Part shown: positions 17,441 through 27,817 of the stretch, in pieces
Numbering within the stretch: the first letter of the stretch is position 1
Layout: each line of letters starts with the position of its first letter
Origin: an uncultured Saprospiraceae bacterium
GTDB taxonomy: Bacteria; Bacteroidota; Bacteroidia; Chitinophagales; Saprospiraceae
Length of the DNA: 44,200 bases
Direction: 5' to 3'
Assembly (NCBI GenBank): GCA_937921555.1
Contig: CAKZUV010000133.1
Location: 1-44,200, forward strand
The notes under the pieces: model-generated
Databases searched by the model: none
What the model was told of the DNA's origin: nothing
The model's input: the letters and a program-made list of their open reading frames with translations, nothing else
Program-made: the position numbers and the translations under genes

Positions 17441-17559
17441 CGGCTAATTCCTTACTTTTTTACATTCAAAATACCAACACATTGTGGATAAAATACCCTG
17501 GCAACGGGTAAGGTGGTCAGGTTATTTATCGTTTGCTACTATATTAACGTTCCTTATTG

Positions 17560-17567
17560 TAATTTTG
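17560..17567 (+). promoter_or_regulatory. Putative -7 promoter element of the M16 gene
   Basis: TAATTTTG fits TAnnTTTG and lies 30 bp before the ATG at 17598. A TTTG at 17532-17535 is 24 bp upstream of it, slightly long. If real, it supports the ATG start rather than the upstream GTG at 17484. Confidence 0.35.
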
Positions 17568-17597
17568 CGCTTTGATTTTACGCTATTCAACCAATAT

Positions 17598-18878
17598 ATG
17601 CTCGACCGAAAAACACCACCACCTATTAAGGCGGCTGATAATCTGGTATTACCAAAACCAGTAGTTTCTTACCTGAGAAATGATATTCCGGTATATACCA
17701 TCAACATGGGAACACAGGATATTGTCAAAATAGAAGTCGTCTTTTTTTCCGGCCGGCCTTTTGAAGATAAAAAACTGGTCGCCCGCACTACGTCCCGGCT
17801 ACTCAAAGAAGGTACAACGGACAAGTCGGCTTCCGAAATAGCGGAGCAAATAGATTTTTACGGGGGAACAATCAGTGTTCCGGTCAACCTGGACACGACC
17901 AATATTACTTTTTACAGCCTTCGTAAACATCTGGACGCACTGCTGCCACTGTTGGGAGAAATAATCTGTGCCCCCAGTTTTCCACAGGAAGAAATGGACG
18001 CCCTGATTGCGAACAGTCGTCAGCGTCTGAAAATCGATCTCTCCAAAAATGACATAGTTGCTTACCGGAAGATAACGGAGAATATTTTTGGGAAAGCGCA
18101 TCCTTACGGATATAACAGTGAGGCACCACTTTATAGTCAGCTGGAGCGAAAAGACCTGATTCACCACCATCAAAAAAATATGGTTGCCGGCAATACAATG
18201 ATATTTTTAAGTGGTAAAATTGATGATCAGGTACTGAAAAAAGTGGATCGCTATCTGGGAGATATTCCCCCAGGAAAAAAGAGAGAAGAAAGTATTTTTC
18301 CGGCACTACCTGCGACCGTCAGAAAAGAGCATTTACACCATTCGGATACTATTCAGACGGCGGTGCGAATCGGCCGCAGATTGTTCAACCGGGCACACCC
18401 GGACTTCCACGGCATGTATGTACTCAACACGATTTTTGGAGGTTATTTTGGTTCCAGATTAATGGAAAATATTCGCGAAAAAAAAGGATACACTTACAAT
18501 ATTTTTTCTTCGATGGATACGATGATGTTCGACGGATATTTTTACGTAGGAACAGAGGTCAGCAACGATCTGACCCAAAAAACGGTGGCAGAGATTTACC
18601 ACGAAATGGAGGTTTTACAAAACGATCTGGTTAGCGAAAAAGAACTGCTGATGGTGCGCAATTACTTGCTGGGAAGTTTGCTGACCATGCTGGACGGACC
18701 ACTCAATATTATCAACGTGGTAAAAGAAACGGTCTCCGAGGGAATACCAGAAAACCATTTTGAAAATTTGGTAAAAACCATTCAGCGAATTTCACCACAG
18801 GAACTGAGGGATTTGGCGCAAAAATATTTTCGGAAAGAAGATTTTTGGGAATTGGCAGTAGGAAAACAGCAGTTTTAA
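17598..18878 (+). CDS. M16-family (insulinase-like) protein lacking the zinc site
   Basis: A 426-residue protein with two M16 halves. Where active members have HxxEH, this one has Arg63-Thr-Thr-Ser-Arg67 before LLKEGT, so it cannot bind zinc in the usual way. The second half is well kept: GGYFGSRLMENIREKKGYTY. In Bacteroidota such inactive subunits usually pair with an active M16 protein encoded next door; no partner is present here. The ATG at 17598 starts with MLDRKTPPPI, the conserved opening of these proteins as I recall them. A GTG at 17484 would add 38 residues including a hydrophobic segment and cannot be excluded; then the protein would be membrane-anchored. Confidence 0.85.
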   Translation: MLDRKTPPPIKAADNLVLPKPVVSYLRNDIPVYTINMGTQDIVKIEVVFFSGRPFEDKKLVARTTSRLLKEGTTDKSASEIAEQIDFYGGTISVPVNLDTTNITFYSLRKHLDALLPLLGEIICAPSFPQEEMDALIANSRQRLKIDLSKNDIVAYRKITENIFGKAHPYGYNSEAPLYSQLERKDLIHHHQKNMVAGNTMIFLSGKIDDQVLKKVDRYLGDIPPGKKREESIFPALPATVRKEHLHHSDTIQTAVRIGRRLFNRAHPDFHGMYVLNTIFGGYFGSRLMENIREKKGYTYNIFSSMDTMMFDGYFYVGTEVSNDLTQKTVAEIYHEMEVLQNDLVSEKELLMVRNYLLGSLLTMLDGPLNIINVVKETVSEGIPENHFENLVKTIQRISPQELRDLAQKYFRKEDFWELAVGKQQF

Positions 18879-18954
18879 ACAACTTCTCATTATAAGCTGC
18901 CAATAATTTATTAATTTAGACAAAATTTGTTTTCTTTTGCAAAAGTAAATGGAA

Positions 18955-18996
18955 ACACTTTCATATTATATATCTTTTTAATATATATAGAAGTGT
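18955..18996. promoter_or_regulatory. Imperfect inverted repeat upstream of mreB
   Basis: ACACTTTCATATTATATAT (18955-18973) pairs imperfectly with ATATATATAGAAGTGT (18981-18996). It lies in the 225-bp space between the M16 gene and mreB. A T-rich loop is present but no T run follows, so an operator or leader structure for the mre operon is as likely as a terminator. Confidence 0.45.
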
Positions 18997-19103
18997 CTGG
19001 CCGGGTTTTGATTAAGCATCAAAATATATTTCCGGTTGCCGCTTCCGCGCCCCACTATAAACAGACTATCAACACAAACGCTCATAAATAGGGAAGACTT
19101 TTA

Positions 19104-20135
19104 ATGAAACTATTCAGCTTTTTTACACAGGAAATAGCGATTGATCTGGGAACGGCCAATACGCTTATCATTCAGGATGGGAAAATAGTAATCGACGAAC
19201 CCTCCATCGTCGCCATTAATCGTCGTACCGGTGAGACCATTGCCGTGGGGATGAAAGCGATGCAGATGCACGAAAAAACCCACGAAAATATAAAAACGGT
19301 TCGCCCGCTCAAAGATGGTGTAATTGCAGATTTTCAGGCAGCGGAGAGTATGATTGAGGGAATGATCAATATGATGGGAAACAAAAGAAAGTTTTTCACC
19401 CACATGAAAATGGTTATCTGTATTCCATCCGGAATTACGGAAGTTGAAAAAAGAGCTGTTTTTGATTCTGCCGATCACGTTGACTCCAAAGAAACATACC
19501 TGATCCACGAGCCAATGGCCGCTGCCCTGGGAATAGGACTGGACGTGGAAGAGCCCATCGGAAATATGATTATTGATATAGGAGGAGGAACAACGGAGAT
19601 TGCCGTCATTGCACTTTCCGGGATTGTTTGTGATCAGTCTATCCGGACGGCTGGAGACGAATTTACCGCGGATATTATGAATTATATGAAGCGGCAACAC
19701 AATATCCTGATCGGAGAACGTACCGCTGAGCAGATAAAAATTCACGTTGGATCGGCTTTGCCGGAACTGGATAATCCACCCGAAGATTATGCGGTTAACG
19801 GACGGGATCTGATGACGGGTATTCCCAAACAAATTACCATAACGTATCAGGAAGTTGCCCACGCACTGGACAAATCCATCTCCAAGGTGGAAGATGCGAT
19901 CCTCAAGGCACTGGAAACGACTCCTCCCGAGTTGGCTTCTGATATTTACAAGACAGGACTTTACCTGACAGGAGGTGGTGCTTTATTGCGCGGACTGGAC
20001 AAAAGAATTTCTACCAAGACAAAACTCCCGGTAGTAATTGCCGAAGATCCGCTGCGGGCCGTAGTGAGAGGGACGGGCATCGCTTTAAAAAATACGGATA
20101 AATTTTCGTTCTTGATTGATCGGAAAAGTGTTTAG
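19104..20135 (+). CDS. mreB: Rod-shape-determining actin homologue MreB
   Basis: A 343-residue bacterial actin that forms membrane-bound filaments and positions the elongation machinery. The ATP-binding motifs DLGTANT (14-20) and DIGGGTTEIAVIALSG are both visible, and the C-terminal LTGGGALLRGLDKRI is the adenosine motif. The N-terminal KLFSFFTQE is the membrane-targeting type. First gene of the mreB-mreC-mreD-mrdA operon. Length is normal. Confidence 0.97.
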   Translation: MKLFSFFTQEIAIDLGTANTLIIQDGKIVIDEPSIVAINRRTGETIAVGMKAMQMHEKTHENIKTVRPLKDGVIADFQAAESMIEGMINMMGNKRKFFTHMKMVICIPSGITEVEKRAVFDSADHVDSKETYLIHEPMAAALGIGLDVEEPIGNMIIDIGGGTTEIAVIALSGIVCDQSIRTAGDEFTADIMNYMKRQHNILIGERTAEQIKIHVGSALPELDNPPEDYAVNGRDLMTGIPKQITITYQEVAHALDKSISKVEDAILKALETTPPELASDIYKTGLYLTGGGALLRGLDKRISTKTKLPVVIAEDPLRAVVRGTGIALKNTDKFSFLIDRKSV

Positions 20136-20190
20136 TAAAAACTTTTGCAGTCAATTCTAAATCAACTATCAAACCTAAAAACGTCTTGAT

Positions 20191-21030
20191 GTGCGGAGTC
20201 TGGTTCTTTTTCTGATTCAATATGGTGGAGTTGGTCTCTTTTTCCTGCTGGAGGCAATCTGCCTTTATCTGGTGGTCAACTATAATCAGCAACAAAAAGA
20301 AATCTGGCTCAATTCTTCCAATATCATCTCGGGATCTCTCCTCAACTTCAGAAGTGATATTTCTCAATATTATAACCTGTCAGAATCCGCGGACAGTCTT
20401 GCTGCCGATAATGCCCGCTTAAAGGCCCGCCTGAATAACGCTCAGTTTGTTCAGACCATCCTGCTGGACTCGGTTAAGGACGTCGAAAAACAACAACAGT
20501 ACACTTACATTGCGGCCAGGGTGGTGAATAGTACCATTCATTTGCACAATAATACATTTACGATCGACCGGGGTAGCAAGCACGGTATCCGGCCGCACAT
20601 GGGCGTGATTGATTCAAATCCGGGAGGTGGTATCGTCGGCATTGTCACCAATGTATCCGAAAATTATAGTGTGGTCATGGCGCTGTTGCATCAAGGCATC
20701 AGAGTTCCGGCGGCTATTCGTCGTAATCATTACCATGGATTTCTTTCGTGGCAACCAAGCAATCCCAAGGTGATTAATTTTATAGATGTTCCCAAACACG
20801 CAGAAATCCGGACAAGAGATACCATTGAGACCAGTACCTATTCTGCCCTTTTCCCAGCTGGAATTCCCGTAGGAATTGTAGATACTTTCTGGCAGGATCC
20901 GGGGAGTAATTTTCATACGATTGCTGCCAATCTGATTAATGACCTGAGCAACGTACAATACGTTTATGTGGTTAATAATTTAATGAAAGGCGAAATAGAA
21001 AAACTAGAAGAGGAGGCCAGCAGTGAATAG
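20191..21030 (+). CDS. mreC: Rod-shape-determining protein MreC
   Basis: A 279-residue bitopic protein: one N-terminal membrane segment (about 8-30), a coiled-coil stretch (about 60-100, LSESADSLAADNARLKARLN), then the periplasmic double beta-barrel that contacts PBP2. It contains the typical TIDRGSKHGIRPHMGVI and GGGIVGIVTNVSENYSVVM motifs. The start is GTG at 20191; no in-frame ATG is available near. It overlaps mreD by 8 bp, a sign of coupled translation. Confidence 0.93.
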   Translation: MRSLVLFLIQYGGVGLFFLLEAICLYLVVNYNQQQKEIWLNSSNIISGSLLNFRSDISQYYNLSESADSLAADNARLKARLNNAQFVQTILLDSVKDVEKQQQYTYIAARVVNSTIHLHNNTFTIDRGSKHGIRPHMGVIDSNPGGGIVGIVTNVSENYSVVMALLHQGIRVPAAIRRNHYHGFLSWQPSNPKVINFIDVPKHAEIRTRDTIETSTYSALFPAGIPVGIVDTFWQDPGSNFHTIAANLINDLSNVQYVYVVNNLMKGEIEKLEEEASSE

Positions 21031-21544
21031 CACAATTATCAAAAATTCGTTTCGTTTTATCGCTTTAGTACTGGCTCAGATACTGATCTTTAAAGGTATT
21101 GATCTGGATACCAACGGATTTACTTATTTTAATATTTTTATTTATCCGGTTTTCATTCTGTTGTTACCTATCCGTACTCCCACGGTGCTGGTTGTTTTAC
21201 TTGGTTTTTTAATTGGAATAACCATTGACATGCCTTACAACTCACCGGGCGTACACGCGGGTGCAAGTGTTTTTTCGGCGTTTATCCGGTCCGCGATTTT
21301 GAATATTCTGGAACCACGGGGAGGTTATGAAGTAAATGCCAGTCCGACAAAATCAAATTATGGCATCAACTTCTTTTTTAAATATGCTGCCAGCTTTATG
21401 TTTTTTCATATCTTAGTATATTTCTCACTGGAAATATTTACACCAGTTTATTTTAATGAGATTTTTATCAGAACCGTATTCAGTTTCATACTGTCTATGC
21501 TGTTCATCATCGTTTATCAGTATTTATTTAATCCAAAAGAATAA
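21023..21544 (+). CDS. mreD: Rod-shape-determining protein MreD
   Basis: A 173-residue polytopic membrane protein with about five hydrophobic segments and little else, typical of MreD. The GTG start at 21023 lies inside the end of mreC. The central GFLIGITIDMPYNSPGVHAG is the usual conserved stretch. It forms the elongasome core with MreC, RodA and PBP2. The stop codon directly abuts the mrdA ATG. Confidence 0.88.
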   Translation: MNSTIIKNSFRFIALVLAQILIFKGIDLDTNGFTYFNIFIYPVFILLLPIRTPTVLVVLLGFLIGITIDMPYNSPGVHAGASVFSAFIRSAILNILEPRGGYEVNASPTKSNYGINFFFKYAASFMFFHILVYFSLEIFTPVYFNEIFIRTVFSFILSMLFIIVYQYLFNPKE

Positions 21545-23404
21545 ATGGCCACCAAAGATATGTACAAAAGCCGGAGCAGGATTATCCAGGGTGTTTTCAT
21601 CATGGCTGCTGTTCTCCTGGTGCTGAGTGCACTAAATATTCAGGTGATTGATCCGGAATATCGGGAAAGGGCACAGGCTACAACGGTAAACAAATACACG
21701 CTTTATCCTTCCCGGGGTCTTATCTATGACCGCAACGGAAAACTACTGGTTATCAACAATGCGATCTATGATCTCAAGGTTGTTTACAAACAACTTGATC
21801 CGGGAATGGACACGATGCATCTTTGTCAGATTCTGAATATAGACCGTAAAACTTTTGAAAAAAATATCAAACCTAATTTTCGGAGCGTCCGGTATTCACA
21901 GTCGGTACCTTTTGTTTTTATGTCAAAAATCTCCGCACGGACCTGCGCAGCTTTGCAGGAGGTACTCTATAAATTCCCCGGATTCTCTTTACAATTAAGA
22001 AACGTTCGCGGCTATCCTCATCAGAATGCTGCCCACGTTCTCGGTTACCTCAGTGAAGTAAACAGCGAACAAATTAAAGCCTCTGATGGAAAATATCAGG
22101 GAGGGGATTATATCGGTTCTACTGGATTAGAAGCTTATTACGAAGAAGAATTGAGGGGCAGAAAAGGAACAAAATTTATCTTAAAAGATAATTTAGGCCG
22201 GAGCGTGGGACCATTTAAAGGAGGTGCGCAGGATTCGGCGGCCGTTTCAGGACTGGATCTAATCAGTTCACTTGACATTGATTTGCAAGCCTACGGAGAA
22301 TCCCTGTTAAAAAATAAAAAAGGCAGCATCGTGGCCATCGAACCTAAAACGGGGGAAGTCCTGGCAATGGTGAGTGCGCCCGCCTATGATCCGAATTTGC
22401 TGACAATTAACCGGGACCGGGGAAAAGCATACAGCTATCTGTTGCAGGATTCTCTCAAACCTTTTCTGGATCGCTCTATTATGGCAGAATATCCGCCGGG
22501 GTCTATTTTTAAAACACTGGTGGCTCTTGCTGGAATGGAAGAGGGGACGATGACCGCAAATACCGGACACGCCTGTAGCGGTGGCTATCTTTACAATGGT
22601 ACGGTACGTGGGTGCCATAACCATGCAGCTCCGTATAATGTAGAAATTGCGTTAGAGCATTCTTGTAATACCTACTTTTTTCAGGAATTCAGAAAACTGG
22701 TAGATCAAAACGGTTTCTATAATCCCGAACCCGGACTGGATGCTTTCGTGGATTATTGTTACCAATTCGGGTTGGGACAACCCCTGGGAATCGATCTCCC
22801 AAACGAGTCTGACGGCAACGTGCCCACCACCGATTACTACGACCGGCTTTATCCAAAAGACAAAGGAAGCTGGAAATCTCCGACGATCATGTCCGTTGGT
22901 ATCGGGCAGGGAGAAATTCAAATGACCACCTTACAGATGGCCAATCTGTCAGCAATCATCGCCAATCGCGGTTACTATTACGTGCCTCACCTGGTTCGTG
23001 GTTTTCGTCCGGCATCGGTACAAATCGCACCTCGCTTTCGCGAAAAAAAACAAGTACCTGTTAGTCCTTCTTACTATCCTGCCATTGTGGATGGAATGCG
23101 CCGGGTGGTCCGTACGGGGACGGCGGCATTGGTAAATATTCCGGATATTGAAATTTGCGGAAAGACGGGAACCTCCCAGAATCCACACGGAAAAGACCAT
23201 TCTGTATTTTTTGCTTTTGCACCCAAAGATAATCCGAAAATCGCGATTGCGGTATACGTTGAACACGGAATATGGGGGGCCAGCTACGCCGCACCTATTG
23301 CCAGTCTGATGATTGAAAAATATTTGAAGGGAGACATTGCGGAAGACCGGATAGCAATGGAAAACGAAATGAGGGATGCTGATTTGATTGCGGATAATCC
23401 GTAG
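21545..23404 (+). CDS. mrdA: Penicillin-binding protein 2 (peptidoglycan transpeptidase)
   Basis: A 619-residue class B PBP that cross-links new side-wall peptidoglycan with RodA. One N-terminal membrane anchor (about 13-34); PBP dimer domain with LYPSRGLIYDRNGKLLVIN; transpeptidase motifs Ser320-x-x-Lys323 (PPGSIFKTL), Ser373-x-Asn375 (EHSCNTYF) and Lys540-Thr-Gly (CGKTGTSQNPHG). All catalytic residues are intact. Fourth gene of the mre operon. rodA, which often follows directly, is 19 kb away; instead a foreign-looking gene starts 25 bp downstream. Confidence 0.95.
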   Translation: MATKDMYKSRSRIIQGVFIMAAVLLVLSALNIQVIDPEYRERAQATTVNKYTLYPSRGLIYDRNGKLLVINNAIYDLKVVYKQLDPGMDTMHLCQILNIDRKTFEKNIKPNFRSVRYSQSVPFVFMSKISARTCAALQEVLYKFPGFSLQLRNVRGYPHQNAAHVLGYLSEVNSEQIKASDGKYQGGDYIGSTGLEAYYEEELRGRKGTKFILKDNLGRSVGPFKGGAQDSAAVSGLDLISSLDIDLQAYGESLLKNKKGSIVAIEPKTGEVLAMVSAPAYDPNLLTINRDRGKAYSYLLQDSLKPFLDRSIMAEYPPGSIFKTLVALAGMEEGTMTANTGHACSGGYLYNGTVRGCHNHAAPYNVEIALEHSCNTYFFQEFRKLVDQNGFYNPEPGLDAFVDYCYQFGLGQPLGIDLPNESDGNVPTTDYYDRLYPKDKGSWKSPTIMSVGIGQGEIQMTTLQMANLSAIIANRGYYYVPHLVRGFRPASVQIAPRFREKKQVPVSPSYYPAIVDGMRRVVRTGTAALVNIPDIEICGKTGTSQNPHGKDHSVFFAFAPKDNPKIAIAVYVEHGIWGASYAAPIASLMIEKYLKGDIAEDRIAMENEMRDADLIADNP

Positions 23405-23429
23405 GTGCGGGCAAATAAAGAAAAAATAA

Positions 23430-25175
23430 ATGAGTGTACAAATTGGAAAAAGATTAAGATATAAAGATTTGTTTAACGATGAACCGTTAGACTTCCAAGA
23501 ATATCTAAAAGGGATTAGCAAAGAAGATATTTATAAAGCAATATCCTTCTTAGTAAATGTGGCAAATCCAAATCATAAGTACCATCAACCCAAAGACATG
23601 GTTAGTGTTTGGTTTTGTGATGAAAACAAAGAATTACGAGCAGAATTATTAAGTAAATTAAATAGCAAAGATTCGATTGCAAACATAATTAGTAGCCTTA
23701 AACTAATGGAATTTGTAATGCAATCAAGTTTCGATGAAAACAGAACAAAGTCAGATGCTGAATCTGAAATTAATTTATTTAAGGCATATTTATTACTAAA
23801 CTCTGAGCAAGATATAATTGAAGAAAAAGGTCACAATAATCTTCGACCTGATGAAGAAAAGGATGAAAGGATGCTTGGATTATTTTTAGCGATGAATTTT
23901 CATGATTCCGATTTGACTAATTACAATTTGTCAGAGTTGATGATAATTCAGTTAATTAAATCAATAGAATTTTTTAAATACTTGAAGAGCAGAAAAGAGC
24001 TTAATCCTCATCTGGAACTTTTCCTATCCAAATATAATAGCGATTCATGGGAAGATTGGATAAAAAAATATTTAGCAATTATTTTCCCCATTATCCAGAA
24101 AGAAGAAAAATCATTTTTTGATTACACAATAGCCAAAGATGAAAACTATGAAATGAATTGTAAGTTTTTTGATTCTTTTACTATAAATGATGAGAACGAT
24201 TTTAGACTTTCAGATTTCATTACTTTACGCAGTAATCCAATCTTGAAAATTGATGAAGGACATTATAGAATCTTAAACAAGTTATTCTTGGTTGAAAAAC
24301 TTTTTAAGAGTATTCAATTTCAATTTAGTCTACAAATAAATGAAGAAGTCAGTAAAGAAGAGCAAATAAAAAATTTTAGGTCAGACCATTGTGATAATTT
24401 TTCAGAAAGAACGCTATTGTATAACATTTTGCGAAATTCATTTCCAAAGAAGAATTGGATACACCTTTCTGGGGATGATTTTTTAGCAAAGGGATATTCA
24501 GCAGAACCTGATTACTATGTCAGATTTAAGAACAAAGTGTTTCTTTTTGAAAGTAAAGATGTTGTCCTTAAAGGTGAGGAAAAACAATCAAGAGATTATC
24601 CAATCCTAAAAAAGGCATTAAGTGAAAAGTTTTACAAGATAGAGAAAGGTGATAAAATTGAGCAAAAAGGAGTTCTACAATTAATCGAAAATATCAAAAG
24701 AATTCTTACGGTTTACTATGATAAATGTGATAAAGGATATATCCCTAAGAACATAAAAATTTATCCAATTCTTGTTATTCATGATAGGCAGTTTGATTCA
24801 CTTTCCGTCAATGAGTTAATTTCCAATTGGTTTAAATTCGAATTATCCAAGATAAAAGCGGAATTCGACATTTCGAACGTCCAACAAATTATAGTCTTGA
24901 ATATTGACACAATGATTTTGTACCAAGAGACTTTCAAGCAAAGAGGAAATAATAGATTGGAGAAACTAATTTCTGATTACCACGAGAACATCAAATTTGA
25001 ACCTGCAAAGTATAGAAGTCTTGGAGAGATCAAAGAAATGAAACTAAATTCGTTACGTCCTTTTACCAATTTTGTGGATGTAGAGTTTGACAAAAGAAAG
25101 GTCAACAAAATACCATCCTATGTAATGAAATATGCAAAAGAATTATTTAAATATGCAAAAGAAGGTACCCCATAA
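23430..25175 (+). CDS. Unrecognised protein with a PD-(D/E)XK nuclease-like signature
   Basis: A 581-residue soluble protein of no family I can name. Residues 1-320 are mostly helical, charged and without motifs I recognise. Residues 320-430 carry the order expected of a PD-(D/E)XK fold: Glu326 in a helix (SERTLLYNILRNSF), Pro360-Asp361 at a beta-strand (AEPDYYVRF), and Glu374-x-Lys376 on the next strand (VFLFESKDV). A helix with GVLQLIENIKRIL follows. The rest (440-581) alternates strands and helices (KIYPILVIHD, VQQIIVLNID). No signal peptide or membrane segment. The gene is much richer in A+T than all neighbours and lies between mrdA and folA, which suggests acquisition by transfer. A role in defence is possible but is inference only; no methylase or helicase is adjacent. 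Confidence 0.72.
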   Translation: MSVQIGKRLRYKDLFNDEPLDFQEYLKGISKEDIYKAISFLVNVANPNHKYHQPKDMVSVWFCDENKELRAELLSKLNSKDSIANIISSLKLMEFVMQSSFDENRTKSDAESEINLFKAYLLLNSEQDIIEEKGHNNLRPDEEKDERMLGLFLAMNFHDSDLTNYNLSELMIIQLIKSIEFFKYLKSRKELNPHLELFLSKYNSDSWEDWIKKYLAIIFPIIQKEEKSFFDYTIAKDENYEMNCKFFDSFTINDENDFRLSDFITLRSNPILKIDEGHYRILNKLFLVEKLFKSIQFQFSLQINEEVSKEEQIKNFRSDHCDNFSERTLLYNILRNSFPKKNWIHLSGDDFLAKGYSAEPDYYVRFKNKVFLFESKDVVLKGEEKQSRDYPILKKALSEKFYKIEKGDKIEQKGVLQLIENIKRILTVYYDKCDKGYIPKNIKIYPILVIHDRQFDSLSVNELISNWFKFELSKIKAEFDISNVQQIIVLNIDTMILYQETFKQRGNNRLEKLISDYHENIKFEPAKYRSLGEIKEMKLNSLRPFTNFVDVEFDKRKVNKIPSYVMKYAKELFKYAKEGTP

Positions 25176-25187
25176 TATTGCATAAAA

Positions 25188-25218
25188 CGGCAATTGCCGG
25201 CAAAAAATGGCAACTGCC
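25188..25218. repeat. Palindrome CGGCAATTGCCG and imperfect second copy
   Basis: CGGCAATTGCCG (25188-25199) is a perfect 12-bp palindrome. GGCAACTGCC at 25209-25218 differs from its core by one base. Both lie between the AT-rich gene and folA, at the right edge of the suspected insertion. No T run follows, so it is a poor terminator. Confidence 0.45.
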
Positions 25219-25263
25219 TTTCTGCCTATCCGATTCCAAAAAAAACAAAAAGATAATATTTAT

Positions 25264-25761
25264 ATGACCATCTCCACCATCGTGGCAGTCGCCAAAAATA
25301 ACGTCATCGGAAAAGACAACGATATCCCCTGGTACCTACCGGCAGATTTAAAATATTTTAAAAAAATAACCACGGGCCACCACATCGTCATGGGACGTAA
25401 ATGCTACGAATCCATCGGTCGTCCCTTACCGAAGCGAACGAATGTAGTCGTCACCCGCAATCCGTTTTTTATCGCTACGGGATGTTTGGTTACGCACAAC
25501 GTGGCCGAAGCCGTGCAGCTGGCAGAAGACAACGGCGAGGAAGAAGTCTTTATCATCGGTGGTGGACAAATCTATGAAATCGCACTGCCGCACGTAGACC
25601 GGATTTATCTGACGGAAGTCGATCTGGAAGTGGAAGGCGATATTTTTTTTCCGGAAATAAATCCCGAAGCGTGGACCCTGATCGAAGAAACCAAACACAA
25701 AGCGGACGAAAAAAACGAACACGATTACACCTTTAAAATCCTGAAAAGAAAAAAAGATTAG
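25264..25761 (+). CDS. folA: Dihydrofolate reductase
   Basis: A 165-residue enzyme that reduces dihydrofolate with NADPH for one-carbon metabolism. Catalytic Asp28 lies in WYLPADLKYFKKIT; GRKCYESIGRPLP and the NADPH-binding VFIIGGGQIYEIALP are clear. The ATG at 25264 was chosen; the in-frame start at 25207 lies in the palindromic repeat and adds 19 residues that are absent from the family. thyA, the usual partner, is not adjacent. Its codons are richer in C than those of the AT-rich gene before it. Confidence 0.95.
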   Translation: MTISTIVAVAKNNVIGKDNDIPWYLPADLKYFKKITTGHHIVMGRKCYESIGRPLPKRTNVVVTRNPFFIATGCLVTHNVAEAVQLAEDNGEEEVFIIGGGQIYEIALPHVDRIYLTEVDLEVEGDIFFPEINPEAWTLIEETKHKADEKNEHDYTFKILKRKKD

Positions 25762-25860
25762 AAATTTTTATGGAATTTGACCGGTTCGGGCATCTAAGTA
25801 AGGACAGATGGAAGTTTTACACACTTCTACATTTAATTTTTGACCTTATTTATAGAAATC

Positions 25861-27240
25861 ATGTTACAGAATTCCCCTTCTCCCCGTCCCGGAAGATTCG
25901 ATCCGAGCGATGTTGCTCCCTTTTTACAATATAGTTCCCTGCTCAGAGAAGATCCCTATGCTACCCTAAAAGAAGATTTTATTCAATACCTCTGGCGGGT
26001 AAAAAAAATATATCTCCACGACTTAAAAACGACCCAGGGAGAGACCATTGAGATCATTGACGCAGGCCGGCACAACACCAATGCTGGTCCGGATTTTTTA
26101 GATGCAAAAATAAAGATTGGCGGAATTTTGTTGATGGGAAATGTCGAAATGCACCTGCGTTCCTCCGAATGGATCAAGCACAAACATCAGTTTGATCCGG
26201 CCTATCAGAATGTCATTTTGCACGTCGTACTGGTAGAAGATGAAATTATTTATCACCGAAATAAAAGCCGTATACCTTGTCTGGAACTTCGCTCGCGCAT
26301 TCCTCCCAATTTATCAAAAACCTATCTGAAAATTATCAACAATGAATCCTGGATTCCCTGCCAGCATTTGTTTCATAAAGTTTCAGAAATACAATTGGCG
26401 CTCTGGCTGGACCGGCTTTTGGTAGAACGACTCCAACGCAAAACTGCCTACATTGCCGAACGGCTGGCGGCTACTCAAAATGATTGGGAGACGTGTTTTT
26501 TTCAGTTACTCTGCCGAAATTTCGGTACAAAAGTAAACGCCGAACCGTTTGAATGGTTGGCACGGATTATCCCGTTGAATCTTCTCGCAAAACACCAGGA
26601 CCGGCTGTTACATATCGAAGCGCTTCTATTTGGACAAGCGGGAATGCTGGAAAGAGATTTTGTGGATGCCTATCCCAATAAATTAAAAAAGGAATATCAG
26701 TTTTTTCAGAAAAAATACGGCCTGGAACCCATTCACGTCGCTTCCTGGAAGATGCTGCGCCTGCGTCCCGCAAATTTCCCAACCATTCGGATTGCTCAGT
26801 TAGCAGTTTTGATTTTCAAGTCCCGGCATTTATTTTCAAAATCATTAGCAGCGACCAATGTCAGGGAAATAGAAAATATGTTTGATCTCAATGTTTCCGC
26901 CTATTGGCAAACCCATTATCTCTTTGACAAAGCCACAGTAAAACGAAAAAAATCGATGGGCAAATCAACCATCCATCTGTTGATCATCAATACCATCGCC
27001 CCATTTTTATTCATCTATGGAAAGAAAAAAGGCGAACAACGCTATAAAGACCACGCCCTGAAATTACTGGAACAAGTCCCCGCAGAAAAAAACAAAATCA
27101 TCACCCGCTGGAAAGAACTAGGCATAAAACCAACCTCCGCCTACCAAACCCAAGCCCTATTAGAACTAAAAAACAACTTCTGCGACCAAAAAGCCTGCCT
27201 CTCCTGCACCGTAGGCCACCAAGTCCTAAAAGTCCCGTAA
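25861..27240 (+). CDS. DUF2851 family protein
   Basis: A 459-residue protein from the ATG at 25861 (a TTG at 25840 is the alternative). DUF2851 is widespread in Bacteroidota and its function is not established. Features: FIQYLWRVKKIYLHDLKTTQ near the N-terminus; AGRHNTNAGPDFLDAKIKIG and GNVEMHLRSSEWIKH, which contain Asp/Glu pairs of a possible nuclease-like core (inference); and a C-terminal Cys cluster FCDQKACLSCTVG. The last 80 codons differ in base use from the rest (rich in C and A, poor in G and T). The stop codon is inside a tandem GTCCCGTAA repeat, so the true C-terminus may have been altered by repeat insertion. Confidence 0.82.
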   Translation: MLQNSPSPRPGRFDPSDVAPFLQYSSLLREDPYATLKEDFIQYLWRVKKIYLHDLKTTQGETIEIIDAGRHNTNAGPDFLDAKIKIGGILLMGNVEMHLRSSEWIKHKHQFDPAYQNVILHVVLVEDEIIYHRNKSRIPCLELRSRIPPNLSKTYLKIINNESWIPCQHLFHKVSEIQLALWLDRLLVERLQRKTAYIAERLAATQNDWETCFFQLLCRNFGTKVNAEPFEWLARIIPLNLLAKHQDRLLHIEALLFGQAGMLERDFVDAYPNKLKKEYQFFQKKYGLEPIHVASWKMLRLRPANFPTIRIAQLAVLIFKSRHLFSKSLAATNVREIENMFDLNVSAYWQTHYLFDKATVKRKKSMGKSTIHLLIINTIAPFLFIYGKKKGEQRYKDHALKLLEQVPAEKNKIITRWKELGIKPTSAYQTQALLELKNNFCDQKACLSCTVGHQVLKVP

Positions 27241-27258
27241 GTCCCGTAAGTCCCGTAG
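27232..27258 (+). repeat. Three tandem copies of GTCCCGTAA
   Basis: Nine-base units at 27232-27240, 27241-27249 and 27250-27258 (the last ends in G and continues into the REP hairpin). The first unit supplies the DUF2851 stop codon. A degenerate unit GTCCCGCAA occurs at 27823-27831 on the other side of the transposase gene. Confidence 0.8.
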
Positions 27259-27288
27259 GGACAACATACGGGTAGCACCGAAGGTGCG
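27250..27288 (+). repeat. REP element, left of RAYT
   Basis: First hairpin GTCCC-GTA-GGGAC (27250-27262), then AACATACGGGTA, then second hairpin GCACC-GAA-GGTGC (27275-27287). It matches the element right of the transposase gene in the first hairpin and in the ACATA-GGGTAG spacer. Confidence 0.75.
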
Positions 27289-27355
27289 AAAAAATCATTC
27301 AAAATCATTGAATCAAAAAATAAAATCAAAAAATCATTTCACAAAAAAACAAACC

Positions 27356-27817
27356 ATGCCAAACACATACACCCAAGTCCATCTTCAAATCGTATTCGCC
27401 GTCAAGTACCGGCAAGCCCTCATTGACCGAAAATGGAAAAATACCCTCTATAAATACATAACCGGTATCATACAAGATTACGATCACAAAGTATTACAAA
27501 TCAATGGAATGCCCGACCATATCCATATCCTCATCGGAATGCGCCCCACCCAATCCCTCTCTGTCCTCATAAAAAATGTAAAAGCCCATTCCTCAAAATG
27601 GATAAACGAAAACAAGCTATCCGACAGCCCTTTCGCCTGGCAAGGAGGATTTGGCGCCTTCTCCTACGCAAAAGACCAAGTACCCAATGTCATCAAGTAC
27701 ATCCAAAACCAGGAACAACACCATCAAAAGCAAACCTTCCTAGAAGAATACATAGAAGCCCTAGAAGAAAACGAAATAGACTACAACAAACGCTACCTCT
27801 TCCAAGCTCCCCAATAA
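27356..27817 (+). CDS. REP-associated tyrosine transposase (IS200/Y1 family)
   Basis: A 153-residue HUH single-strand transposase. The His55-Ile-His57 metal site is in MPDHIHILIGM; the nucleophile Tyr115 and Gln119 are in VIKYIQNQEQHH, with the expected Y-x3-Q spacing. The opening MPNTYTQVHLQIVFAVKYRQ and the SSKWINE and GGFGAFSYAK motifs match the Bacteroidota RAYT/IS200 type. The ATG at 27356 was chosen; an in-frame start at 27284 lies in the REP hairpin. All catalytic residues are intact, so it may be active. No TnpB or guide RNA partner is adjacent. It probably moves or maintains the REP elements around it. Confidence 0.92.
   Translation: MPNTYTQVHLQIVFAVKYRQALIDRKWKNTLYKYITGIIQDYDHKVLQINGMPDHIHILIGMRPTQSLSVLIKNVKAHSSKWINENKLSDSPFAWQGGFGAFSYAKDQVPNVIKYIQNQEQHHQKQTFLEEYIEALEENEIDYNKRYLFQAPQ

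What the first reader, a model, noticed from the sequence alone, without database searches (positions are those of the whole stretch)
23430..25175. AT-rich lone PD-(D/E)XK-like gene at the end of the mre-mrd operon
The sequence shows a 581-codon gene with base use clearly different from mrdA before and folA after it (dominant AAA, GAT, ATT, TTT codons). It carries Glu326, Pro360-Asp361 and Glu374-x-Lys376 in the order of a PD-(D/E)XK active site. I do not recognise the 320-residue helical N-terminus or the C-terminal alpha/beta part. A single large nuclease-like gene of foreign composition in a housekeeping operon fits a stand-alone anti-phage or restriction factor, but that is inference; no partner gene is present.
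Basis: partly seen in the sequence, partly recalled or inferred. Interest (0 to 1): 0.72.

Follow-up and report, generated by a model that had tools for sequence, protein, structure and literature searches.

The report
Nuclease gene carried by integron-like cassette
A bacterium's cell-shape gene operon ends with a foreign gene for a probable DNA-cutting enzyme that looks like an anti-virus defence and that seems to have arrived as a small mobile gene cassette, the same one found, in an array of such cassettes, in a distant relative.

Summary
ORF 23430-25175 (581 codons, GC 29% against 43-46% in five neighbouring genes) is real and foreign. A modest structure model of residues 300-540 best matches restriction-type nuclease domains (N.BspD6I, FokI, Upx, Can2, Shedu). 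No Pfam, NCBIfam or PADLOC family matches it.

New here: the gene sits in a cassette. The 1.8-kb segment is 94.5% identical to one in Neolewinella lacunae, although MrdA of the two is only 47% identical. There it is a unit of a cassette array with attC-like hairpins; a degraded copy of that hairpin lies at 25169-25232 of the window. The cassette starts right after the mrdA stop codon, where three related genomes carry another gene. Homologues are patchy, AT-rich genes on plasmids, a conjugative element and a prophage in Bacteroidota, several beside defence genes.

Most likely it is a Shedu-like single-gene anti-phage nuclease, not Shedu by profile, dispersed as an integron-type cassette and inserted outside an array. 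Defence function is inferred; no canonical integron integrase was found.

The parts
23405..25232 (+). transferred unit (cassette): gene plus short 5' leader and degraded attC-like site
   Evidence: blastn with N. lacunae L003 aligns window 23409-25225 at 94.5% and then stops. Global alignment carries the similarity from about 23405 to 25232.
23430..25175 (+). 581-aa nuclease-like protein (X)
   Evidence: ORF; homologues; dN/dS 0.22
23430..24326 (+). N-terminal mostly helical region, residues 1-299, no family match, model of low confidence
   Evidence: no family; helices predicted, mean pLDDT 52 for the whole protein
24327..25049 (+). PD-(D/E)XK-like nuclease region, residues 300-540
   Evidence: model pTM 0.64, mean pLDDT 59.5; VIA-align Z 9.4 N.BspD6I, 8.2 FokI, 7.5 Upx, 6.9 Can2, 6.2 Shedu
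24405..24407 (+). Glu326 codon (helix before the core)
   Evidence: 21 of 21 aligned sequences
24507..24512 (+). Pro360-Asp361 codons
   Evidence: 21 of 21 aligned sequences each
24549..24557 (+). Glu374-x-Lys376 codons
   Evidence: E and K 21 of 21 aligned sequences each
24678..24680 (+). Gln417 codon (helix after the core)
   Evidence: 21 of 21 aligned sequences
23402..23404 (+). mrdA stop codon TAG, left junction; cassette-type start GTGCGGGCAA follows (TTATGGGCAA in N. lacunae)
25169..25232 (+). degraded attC-like site: CCCATAAT box, inverted repeat GGCAATTGCC/GGCAACTGCC, ends CCG before ATTCC
   Evidence: 57 of 69 alignment columns identical to the N. lacunae attC-like site; fold z -1.98 here against -5.05 in N. 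lacunae
25233..25263 (+). right flank, probable original leader of folA; folA ATG at 25264
   Evidence: homologous FolA proteins align from query residues 17-20 in 6 of 7 tblastn hits, from residue 6 in the other

Best explanation
The gene encodes a single-polypeptide PD-(D/E)XK DNA nuclease, with an N-terminal region of about 300 residues that I infer to sense or bind the target and a C-terminal catalytic domain. Its likeliest job is innate anti-phage defence of the Shedu type: the N-terminal region recognises a feature of invading DNA (an end, a structure or a modification) and licenses the C-terminal domain to nick or cut it; no methyltransferase or partner is needed, so one gene can travel alone. 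It reached this genome by horizontal transfer as an integron-type gene cassette (one ORF plus attC-like hairpin) that was inserted right behind the mrdA stop codon, outside any array, in the manner published for attC x attG events; it is then probably transcribed by read-through from the mre-mrd operon. Shown: foreign gene, conserved active site, nuclease-type fold at model level, cassette form in N. lacunae, degraded cassette ends here. Inferred: cleavage of DNA, anti-phage role, the recombination route and the read-through.
For: Active site E326/P360-D361/E374-x-K376/Q417 invariant in 21 of 21 aligned sequences down to 20% identity. The fold model's first 17 VIA-align rows are all restriction-type nucleases (the superfamily of each title is from my own knowledge). 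Transfer: X is 92% identical to N. lacunae while MrdA is 47% identical. Shared DNA ends abruptly on both sides. N. lacunae array: three consecutive units whose 5' start and 3' box are complementary over 9 nt, a chain reached by 1 of 300 shuffles (test designed after seeing the array); the X hairpin folds at z -5.05. A covariance model from 4 other N. lacunae sites finds 8 further places there at E<=1, 6 of them below 1e-3, and a place at E<0.05 in 5 of 6 genomes of the window's family and in 0 of 6 outside it. Mobile and defence context: 8 Hymenobacter plasmids, 7 of 8 with a restriction, pAgo, BrxE or toxin label within 8 kb; a conjugative element, a prophage-like contig; PtuA near the L031 copy, Drt8 plus RTasPDDEXK near the L032 copy. 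dN/dS 0.22.
Against: No biochemical or phage data. The fold model is weak (mean pLDDT 59.5) and Foldseek found nothing at E<=0.001; Z of 8-9 is only at the edge of what models without clear matches give (note). Profile comparison with Shedu is empty. Neighbours scanned with PADLOC were picked by eye (20 proteins). The plasmid neighbourhoods share backbones and are not independent. No integron integrase above the curated cut-off in N. lacunae, the window genome or G036. The window's own hairpin is unremarkable (z -1.98 against -1.80 for one of four control spacers). The mere number of complementary 9-nt pairs in the N. lacunae locus is at chance (4 against 4.40), and with 8-nt boxes the chain is not significant (71 of 300). 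Homologues elsewhere were not shown to be cassettes. In the Xanthomonas survey only 1.8% of cassette orthologues were called defences (PMC12444791, passage).
Confidence: 0.62

Rival explanations
1. A modification-dependent (type IV) or unusual single-chain restriction enzyme: the N-terminal region reads a base modification or a short sequence, the C-terminal FokI/N.BspD6I-like domain cuts or nicks. Still defence, but by sequence or modification rather than by DNA ends or structure.
For: Best structural matches of residues 300-540 are the C-terminal parts of N.BspD6I and FokI, which also have recognition first and cleavage last (own knowledge). No methyltransferase among the neighbours scanned in the window or the two scanned in the N. 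lacunae array, as expected for a type IV enzyme.
Against: No DNA- or modified-base-binding domain was recognised in residues 1-299. FokI itself needs methyltransferases (own knowledge); I saw none recurring next to the family. Z differences between N.BspD6I and the other nuclease families are small.
Confidence: 0.2
2. A cassette-borne abortive-infection or addiction-type toxin nuclease that attacks host DNA or RNA when a phage perturbs the cell.
For: Plasmid, conjugative-element and prophage carriage; AbiEii or HigB genes near some copies; Can2 and Card1, which are CRISPR-linked effectors (own knowledge), are among the structural matches.
Against: No antitoxin-like partner seen to recur; a cyclic-nucleotide sensor domain was not recognised.
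Confidence: 0.12
3. A housekeeping or selfish DNA-processing enzyme (repair or recombination accessory of mobile elements), not a defence.
For: Linkage in several loci to tra, relaxase, ParB, SSB or resolvase genes (in named by my reading of the sequences).
Against: Patchy presence (15 of 395 phylum genomes and 17 of 395 class genomes, window genome included), no fixed linkage to one mobility gene, and existence as an isolated cassette.
Confidence: 0.1
4. The segment came in by ordinary homologous or illegitimate recombination and the attC-like ends are coincidence.
For: The window's own hairpin is weak, no canonical integrase was found, and the slot holds a different gene in related genomes, so a gene replacement is possible.
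Against: The shared segment ends at the same two points that bound a unit in N. lacunae, including the full attC-like stretch.
Confidence: 0.2

Closest known systems
Shedu (SduA, SduA_C / PF14082)
   Same: One gene, variable N-terminal part plus C-terminal PD-(D/E)XK domain; the same order of invariant residues E, D, E-x-K, Q (E216, D259, E273-K275, Q304); structural match Z 6.2; Shedu is named among cassette-borne defences in Xanthomonas integrons (PMC12444791, passages).
   Different: No Pfam SduA_C match; hhalign probability under 2% whether whole or trimmed, comparable to the reversed control; a PD motif where the 9 Shedu proteins have D without P; the first catalytic E lies at 326 here against 216 in the Shedu reference row.
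N.BspD6I / FokI type IIS cleavage domains
   Same: Best structural matches of residues 300-540 (Z 9.4 and 8.2); cleavage domain at the C-terminal end.
   Different: About 10% identity; no methyltransferase among scanned neighbours, no recognised DNA-recognition domain.
Upx, Can2, Cdn1, Card1, Avs4, HamA, McrBC nuclease domains
   Same: Nuclease domains of other defence systems, Z 4.7-7.5.
   Different: Those proteins carry other sensors (own knowledge), not recognised here.
Integron gene cassettes, CALINs and attG insertions
   Same: Single ORF with a 3' attC-like hairpin and boxes complementary to the cassette start; CALIN elements are reported by IntegronFinder (term seen in PMC9024848 passages; its meaning, attC clusters without integrase, is recalled); insertion of cassettes at genomic attG sites is published (Loot 2024: title and one descriptive sentence seen).
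   Different: No integrase over the curated cut-off; the best recombinases align to the integron-integrase model in two stretches that skip about positions 180-238; four sites carry a shared loop CGACC-N4/5-GGGAG not known to me from other integrons.

Membership tests
PD-(D/E)XK nuclease superfamily | Conserved E ... (P)D ... E-x-K in order | tested here: met
   E326, P360, D361, E374, K376 in 21 of 21 aligned sequences
PD-(D/E)XK nuclease superfamily | Restriction-endonuclease-like core fold | tested here: met
   Model of moderate quality; first 17 rows of VIA-align are such nucleases, best Z 9.4; Foldseek alone is not significant
PD-(D/E)XK nuclease superfamily | Metal-dependent nucleic acid cleavage | not testable with these tools
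   needs purified protein
Shedu | Match to SduA_C (PF14082) or PADLOC models | tested here: not met
   No such Pfam or PADLOC hit; hhalign with 9 Shedu proteins empty
Shedu | Single gene, C-terminal nuclease with E, D, E-x-K, Q | tested here: met
Shedu | DNA-end sensing by a homotetramer | not testable with these tools
   described for EcSduA in PMC12904381 (passages)
Type II restriction-modification | Cognate methyltransferase next to the nuclease | tested here: not met
   none among the window neighbours scanned (17484-27817) or two array neighbours in N. lacunae; other genes were not scanned
Integron gene cassette (N. lacunae copy) | 3' attC: imperfect palindrome with terminal boxes | tested here: met
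   L003 7739-7809: z -5.05, GTTATGGGC/GCCCATAAC boxes
Integron gene cassette (N. lacunae copy) | Tandem array of such units | tested here: met
   three chained units, 1 of 300 shuffles at 9 nt but 71 of 300 at 8 nt; two of the array's sites are among the four seeds of model R1
Integron | Integron integrase (TIGR02249) in the genome | tested here: not met
   0 of 3 genomes over the cut-off; best proteins 214 and 218 bits against 265; draft assemblies
Cassette inserted at attG (window copy) | Cassette start joined to genomic G, attC end joined to the rest of the target | tested here: inconclusive
   junctions TAG|GTGCGGGC and CCG|ATTCC fit; start differs at 3 of 10 positions and no uninterrupted site was found; the G-W-T target rule is recalled, not from a call

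The most novel reading that the evidence does not exclude
Saprospirales bacteria carry an integron-like cassette system with its own attC-like site family and a non-classical tyrosine recombinase; it stores and spreads single-gene defences such as this uncharacterised nuclease, and drops them behind housekeeping operons such as mre-mrd, which then express them.
Probability: 0.4. Interest if true: 0.8.

Novelty: new variant of a known kind. Interest (0 to 1): 0.6.

Why it matters
Recent papers, whose titles I saw in a reference list, describe integrons as stores of anti-phage genes; one text says that 20% of V. cholerae cassettes without predicted function are defences that software misses (PMC12444791 section 15 citing its reference 91; passage). 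Bacteroidota are named among phyla with integrons (PMC8618304 and PMC9668308, one passage each), but IntegronFinder 2.0 reported only In0 elements and then one complete integron, in Salinibacter, for Bacteroidetes (PMC9024848 section 3.1, passage). A Bacteroidota cassette carrying a nuclease that the family libraries do not know, caught after insertion behind an operon for cell shape, ties both ideas together and gives a testable single gene and a testable site family. A search for papers holding two of integron, Lewinella, Saprospiria and Neolewinella returned 8, none holding 'integron', within an open-licence library only.

Tried and rejected
Family libraries: no hit for the window protein in Pfam, PADLOC, NCBIfam or PDB sequences; one PHROG at E 0.052 judged chance. 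Scans of the aligned members gave only scattered weak Pfam hits and no PADLOC hit, and profile searches of PDB sequences gave one potassium-channel chain at E 0.79 and then none; one member of A2 matched PF15518 L_protein_N at 2.7e-4, not followed up and not shared by the others.

Shedu membership by profile: empty, also after trimming, with no realignment and in global mode; the reversed control scored slightly above the true one in local mode and below it in global mode, all under 2% probability.

Full-length structure model: mean pLDDT 52, not searched. Further viral scans with subgroups returned nothing or the same two contigs. No phage record matched.

REP/transposon idea for the palindrome at 25189: only 1 copy in the genome with up to 3 mismatches, itself, so rejected.

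First hairpin finder was unspecific: 15.2 hits per shuffled N. lacunae locus; replaced by chained boxes and the covariance model. RNAalifold found only 4 pairs in the seed and none in A9, I think because the arms misalign; I then named a 19-pair structure myself from complementary columns of the same alignment, so its counts (85.1% cells paired against 71.5% shuffled and 31-43% slid) lean towards it. Two measures did not exceed the shuffles clearly: pairs with a change on both sides (57 of 500) and further pair types (99 of 500). Seed site L133:4888 does not fold well (z +1.23), nor does L003:9798 (z -0.08). Model R1 does not match the window (0 matches) nor the hairpin of X itself in L149: that hairpin lacks the shared loop. 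At E<=1, R1 also rings in 2 of the 6 control genomes outside the family (E 0.17 and 0.97).

The gene that related genomes have at this site was called CapA-like from its sequence by eye; no family search was run on it. It was not found elsewhere in the window genome, but the tool warns that an empty answer without a positive control shows little.

Defence enrichment on plasmids: against 7 of 8 X loci, 143.5 kb elsewhere on 3 of the 8 plasmids held one AbiEii pair, one Fic/VbhA pair, one HNH gene and one UvrD-helicase gene with an unnamed neighbour that I did not check; suggestive, not independent.

Rows dropped: the split copy L009, the partial L041 and the distant L042 were left out of A2; L010 and L011, truncated, were in A1 only; the further hits were not aligned. 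In the class and phylum searches only up to 3 candidates per genome were scored, so counts are lower bounds.

Full report
THE GENE. ORF 23430-25175 (+) is a 581-codon gene between mrdA and folA. Its GC is 0.293 with GC3 0.272; mreB, mrdA, folA, the DUF2851 gene and ORF 30032 have GC 0.43-0.46 and GC3 0.43-0.53. The deepest dip of the GC profile is here. Pfam, PADLOC, NCBIfam and PDB sequences hold nothing like it.

HOMOLOGUES. Of 60 genomes (the window's and 59 relatives) 2 have it: the window genome and G036, 51% identical. A profile finds it in 15 of 395 phylum genomes and 17 of 395 class genomes, both counts including the window genome and the two sets overlapping. Neolewinella lacunae has a 92% identical copy. 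Eight plasmid records, all Hymenobacter, carry 27-31% identical copies. IMG/VR gives two contigs: one with the gene among tra genes of a conjugative element with an integrase, one with the gene between tail genes and an integrase; apart from the integrase of the second, these neighbours are named from my reading of their sequences. GenBank phages give none. In 14 of 14 loci examined the gene is poorer in GC than its flanks. I saw no neighbour that recurs across the family, except that in L036 and L038 a similar gene of about 340 codons overlaps the 3' end.

ACTIVE SITE AND FOLD. Over 21 aligned sequences, down to 20% identity, E326, P360, D361, Y363, E374, K376, Q417 and P446 never vary, nor do L90, D262 and P270. 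The full-length model is poor (pLDDT 52). The model of residues 300-540, from 4 sequences, has pTM 0.64 and mean pLDDT 59.5, with helix 326-337, strands at 362-366 and 369-375 next to or carrying PD and E-x-K, then helices and a strand at 443-450. Foldseek has no hit at E<=0.001, though Shedu, Can2, BstEII and Upx are among its first ten. VIA-align of 997 of Foldseek's top 1000 chains puts restriction-type nucleases in all of the first 17 rows: N.BspD6I Z 9.4, FokI 8.2, R.BspD6I2 8.2, Upx 7.5, Can2 6.9, Cdn1 6.5, Shedu 6.2; the first unrelated row is rank 18 at Z 6.0 (superfamily of each title from my own knowledge). Alone such Z values are borderline; with the invariant motif in the right order they make the superfamily assignment solid in my judgement.

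TRANSFER. The nucleotide match with N. lacunae runs from 23409 to 25225 at 94.5% and then stops. MrdA of the two genomes is only 47% identical. So the segment moved between distant lineages recently. The two copies differ with dN 0.034 and dS 0.155, ratio 0.22: the protein is maintained.

THE SITE. Nine mrdA regions of related genomes were read; X is in none. Two have mrdA, a CapA-like gene (named by eye) and folA in a row (G002, G022); G006 has mrdA and the start of that gene at a contig end; G007 and G013 have mrdA directly before folA; G015 has a gap of about 500 bases; in G005, G021 and G017 no folA was found in the stretch read. In the window X stands where three of the nine have the CapA-like gene; that gene was not found elsewhere in the genome (weak test).

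THE CASSETTE. In N. lacunae the segment is bounded by GTTATGGGC at its start and GCCCATAAC at its end, followed by a palindrome and a new GTT. The unit before it, whose gene weakly resembles PP2C phosphatases (20.8 bits against a cut-off of 230), starts GTTACTATCC and ends GGATAGTAAC; the unit after it starts GTTGGGGCC and ends GGCCCCAAC. This is the logic of integron cassettes, in which the 3' box is complementary to the unit's own start (own knowledge). The number of such 9-nt pairs alone is at chance (4 against 4.40), but a chain of three was reached in only 1 of 300 dinucleotide shuffles; with 8-nt pairs it was reached in 71 of 300. I designed this test after seeing the array. The hairpin after X folds far better than shuffles (z -5.05); L132:8939 (-3.57), L003:1336 (-2.60) and L003:5068 (-2.52) also do, L003:5911 (-1.59), L003:9798 (-0.08) and L133:4888 (+1.23) do not.

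Four N. lacunae sites share a loop CGACC-N4/5-GGGAG between TAACG and a GTT- or TTAT-type end. A model from them (R1) finds 12 places in N. lacunae at E<=1, the 4 seeds included, and 1 in the window genome (E 0.0057); among 12 other genomes, 5 of 6 from the window's family have a place at E<0.05 and 0 of 6 from outside do (two of these ring at 0.17 and 0.97). Of 10 places mapped, 6 lie clear of the ORFs listed and 4 overlap the 5' part of a longest-ORF call or a small ORF. On 28 aligned matches a 19-pair structure is formed in 85.1% of cells (shuffled 71.5%, slid 31-43%), with 71 cells changed on both sides (shuffled mean 26.7); I derived the structure from the same alignment, which favours it. 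A canonical integron integrase was not found above the cut-off in three genomes; the best candidates, 567 and 591 aa and 39% identical to each other, reach 214 and 218 bits of 265 in two separate stretches. So N. lacunae holds attC-like arrays, with the recombinase open.

THE WINDOW COPY. After the mrdA stop TAG comes GTGCGGGCAA (TTATGGGCAA in N. lacunae) and the leader AAAGAAAAAATAAATG shared by both; the 3' hairpin region is 57 of 69 columns identical, ends in CCG and is followed by ATTCC and the folA leader, with folA starting at 25264. The ends differ more than the gene does. If the cassette is taken out on paper, mrdA's TAG would meet ATTCC, that is G-A-T at the joint; published attG insertions, as I recall and did not read, prefer G-W-T. 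What I saw in print is the title and a sentence saying that attG sites are neither attC nor attI and are widely spread in E. coli.

FUNCTION. Arguments for defence: nuclease active site; mobile gene with patchy spread; cargo on plasmids, a conjugative element and a prophage; neighbours. Of 8 Hymenobacter loci, 7 have a restriction, pAgo, BrxE, AbiEii or HigB label within 8 kb (L004 has none), against one AbiEii pair, one Fic/VbhA pair, one HNH gene and one unchecked UvrD-helicase gene in 143.5 kb elsewhere on three of those plasmids. In genomes, 20 proteins near ten copies, chosen by eye, were scanned with PADLOC: PtuA near L031, Drt8 with RTasPDDEXK near L032, PDC-M36A near L028, partial pAgo-associated matches near L034 and L039, and only weak hits or none for L003, L029, L036, L038 and L040. 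One paper's text says that 20% of V. cholerae integron cassettes without predicted function are anti-phage; its own Xanthomonas survey called 1.8% of cassette orthologues defences (PMC12444791, passages). Shedu is the closest working model: EcSduA binds DNA ends with an N-terminal clamp and cuts with a PD-(D/E)XK domain (PMC12904381, passages). X shares the layout and the residue order but not the profile, so I say it works like Shedu, not that it is Shedu.

VERDICT. Observation confirmed; interpretation partly supported; new protein family of a known enzyme superfamily, on an integron-type cassette that has left its array.

Noticed in passing
L147, L149, L150, L151, L132, L157-L161 (N. lacunae and other genomes of the order): A shared attC-like site family (TAACG ... 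CGACC-N4/5-GGGAG ... TTGTTAG), in N. lacunae and 5 of 6 tested genomes of the window's family; possibly an undescribed integron-like system of Saprospirales.
   Followed up: partly
L129 8217-9920 (window genome, contig C385) and L130 4573-6348 (N. lacunae): Tyrosine recombinases of 567 and 591 aa with a long N-terminal extension and sub-cut-off integron-integrase scores; truncated copies lacking about the first 380 residues recur in N. lacunae contigs L131, L132, L133.
   Followed up: partly
L036 9777-10820 and L038 9927-10946: Two members of the nuclease family are overlapped at the 3' end by a similar gene of about 340 codons, a possible partner in that subfamily; no PADLOC match.
   Followed up: no
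L096 2564-3718, L097 10693-11916, L098 6059-6730: CapA-like gene (named by eye) between mrdA and folA in related genomes, at the place where the window carries the cassette; in L098 it is cut by the contig end.
   Followed up: partly
L009 8034-9694, L010 7684-9440, L011 7667-9410: Three of the eight Hymenobacter plasmid copies are split into two overlapping ORFs or shortened at the 5' side; real decay or sequencing error was not checked.
   Followed up: no
L027 10067-10801: Near the conjugative-element copy lies a 244-aa protein with HG...C spacing reminiscent, by eye, of CHAT/caspase-like proteases; no NCBIfam match.
   Followed up: no
L159 3975-7539: Four tandem genes with similar starts (..MIKFFRKIRQ.LL.ENKFSKYL.YAIGE..) in a contig with attC-like places, as expected of repeated cassettes.
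   Followed up: no
window 27284-27817: IS200-like Y1 transposase gene (PF01797, 101 bits) two genes downstream of folA.
   Followed up: no
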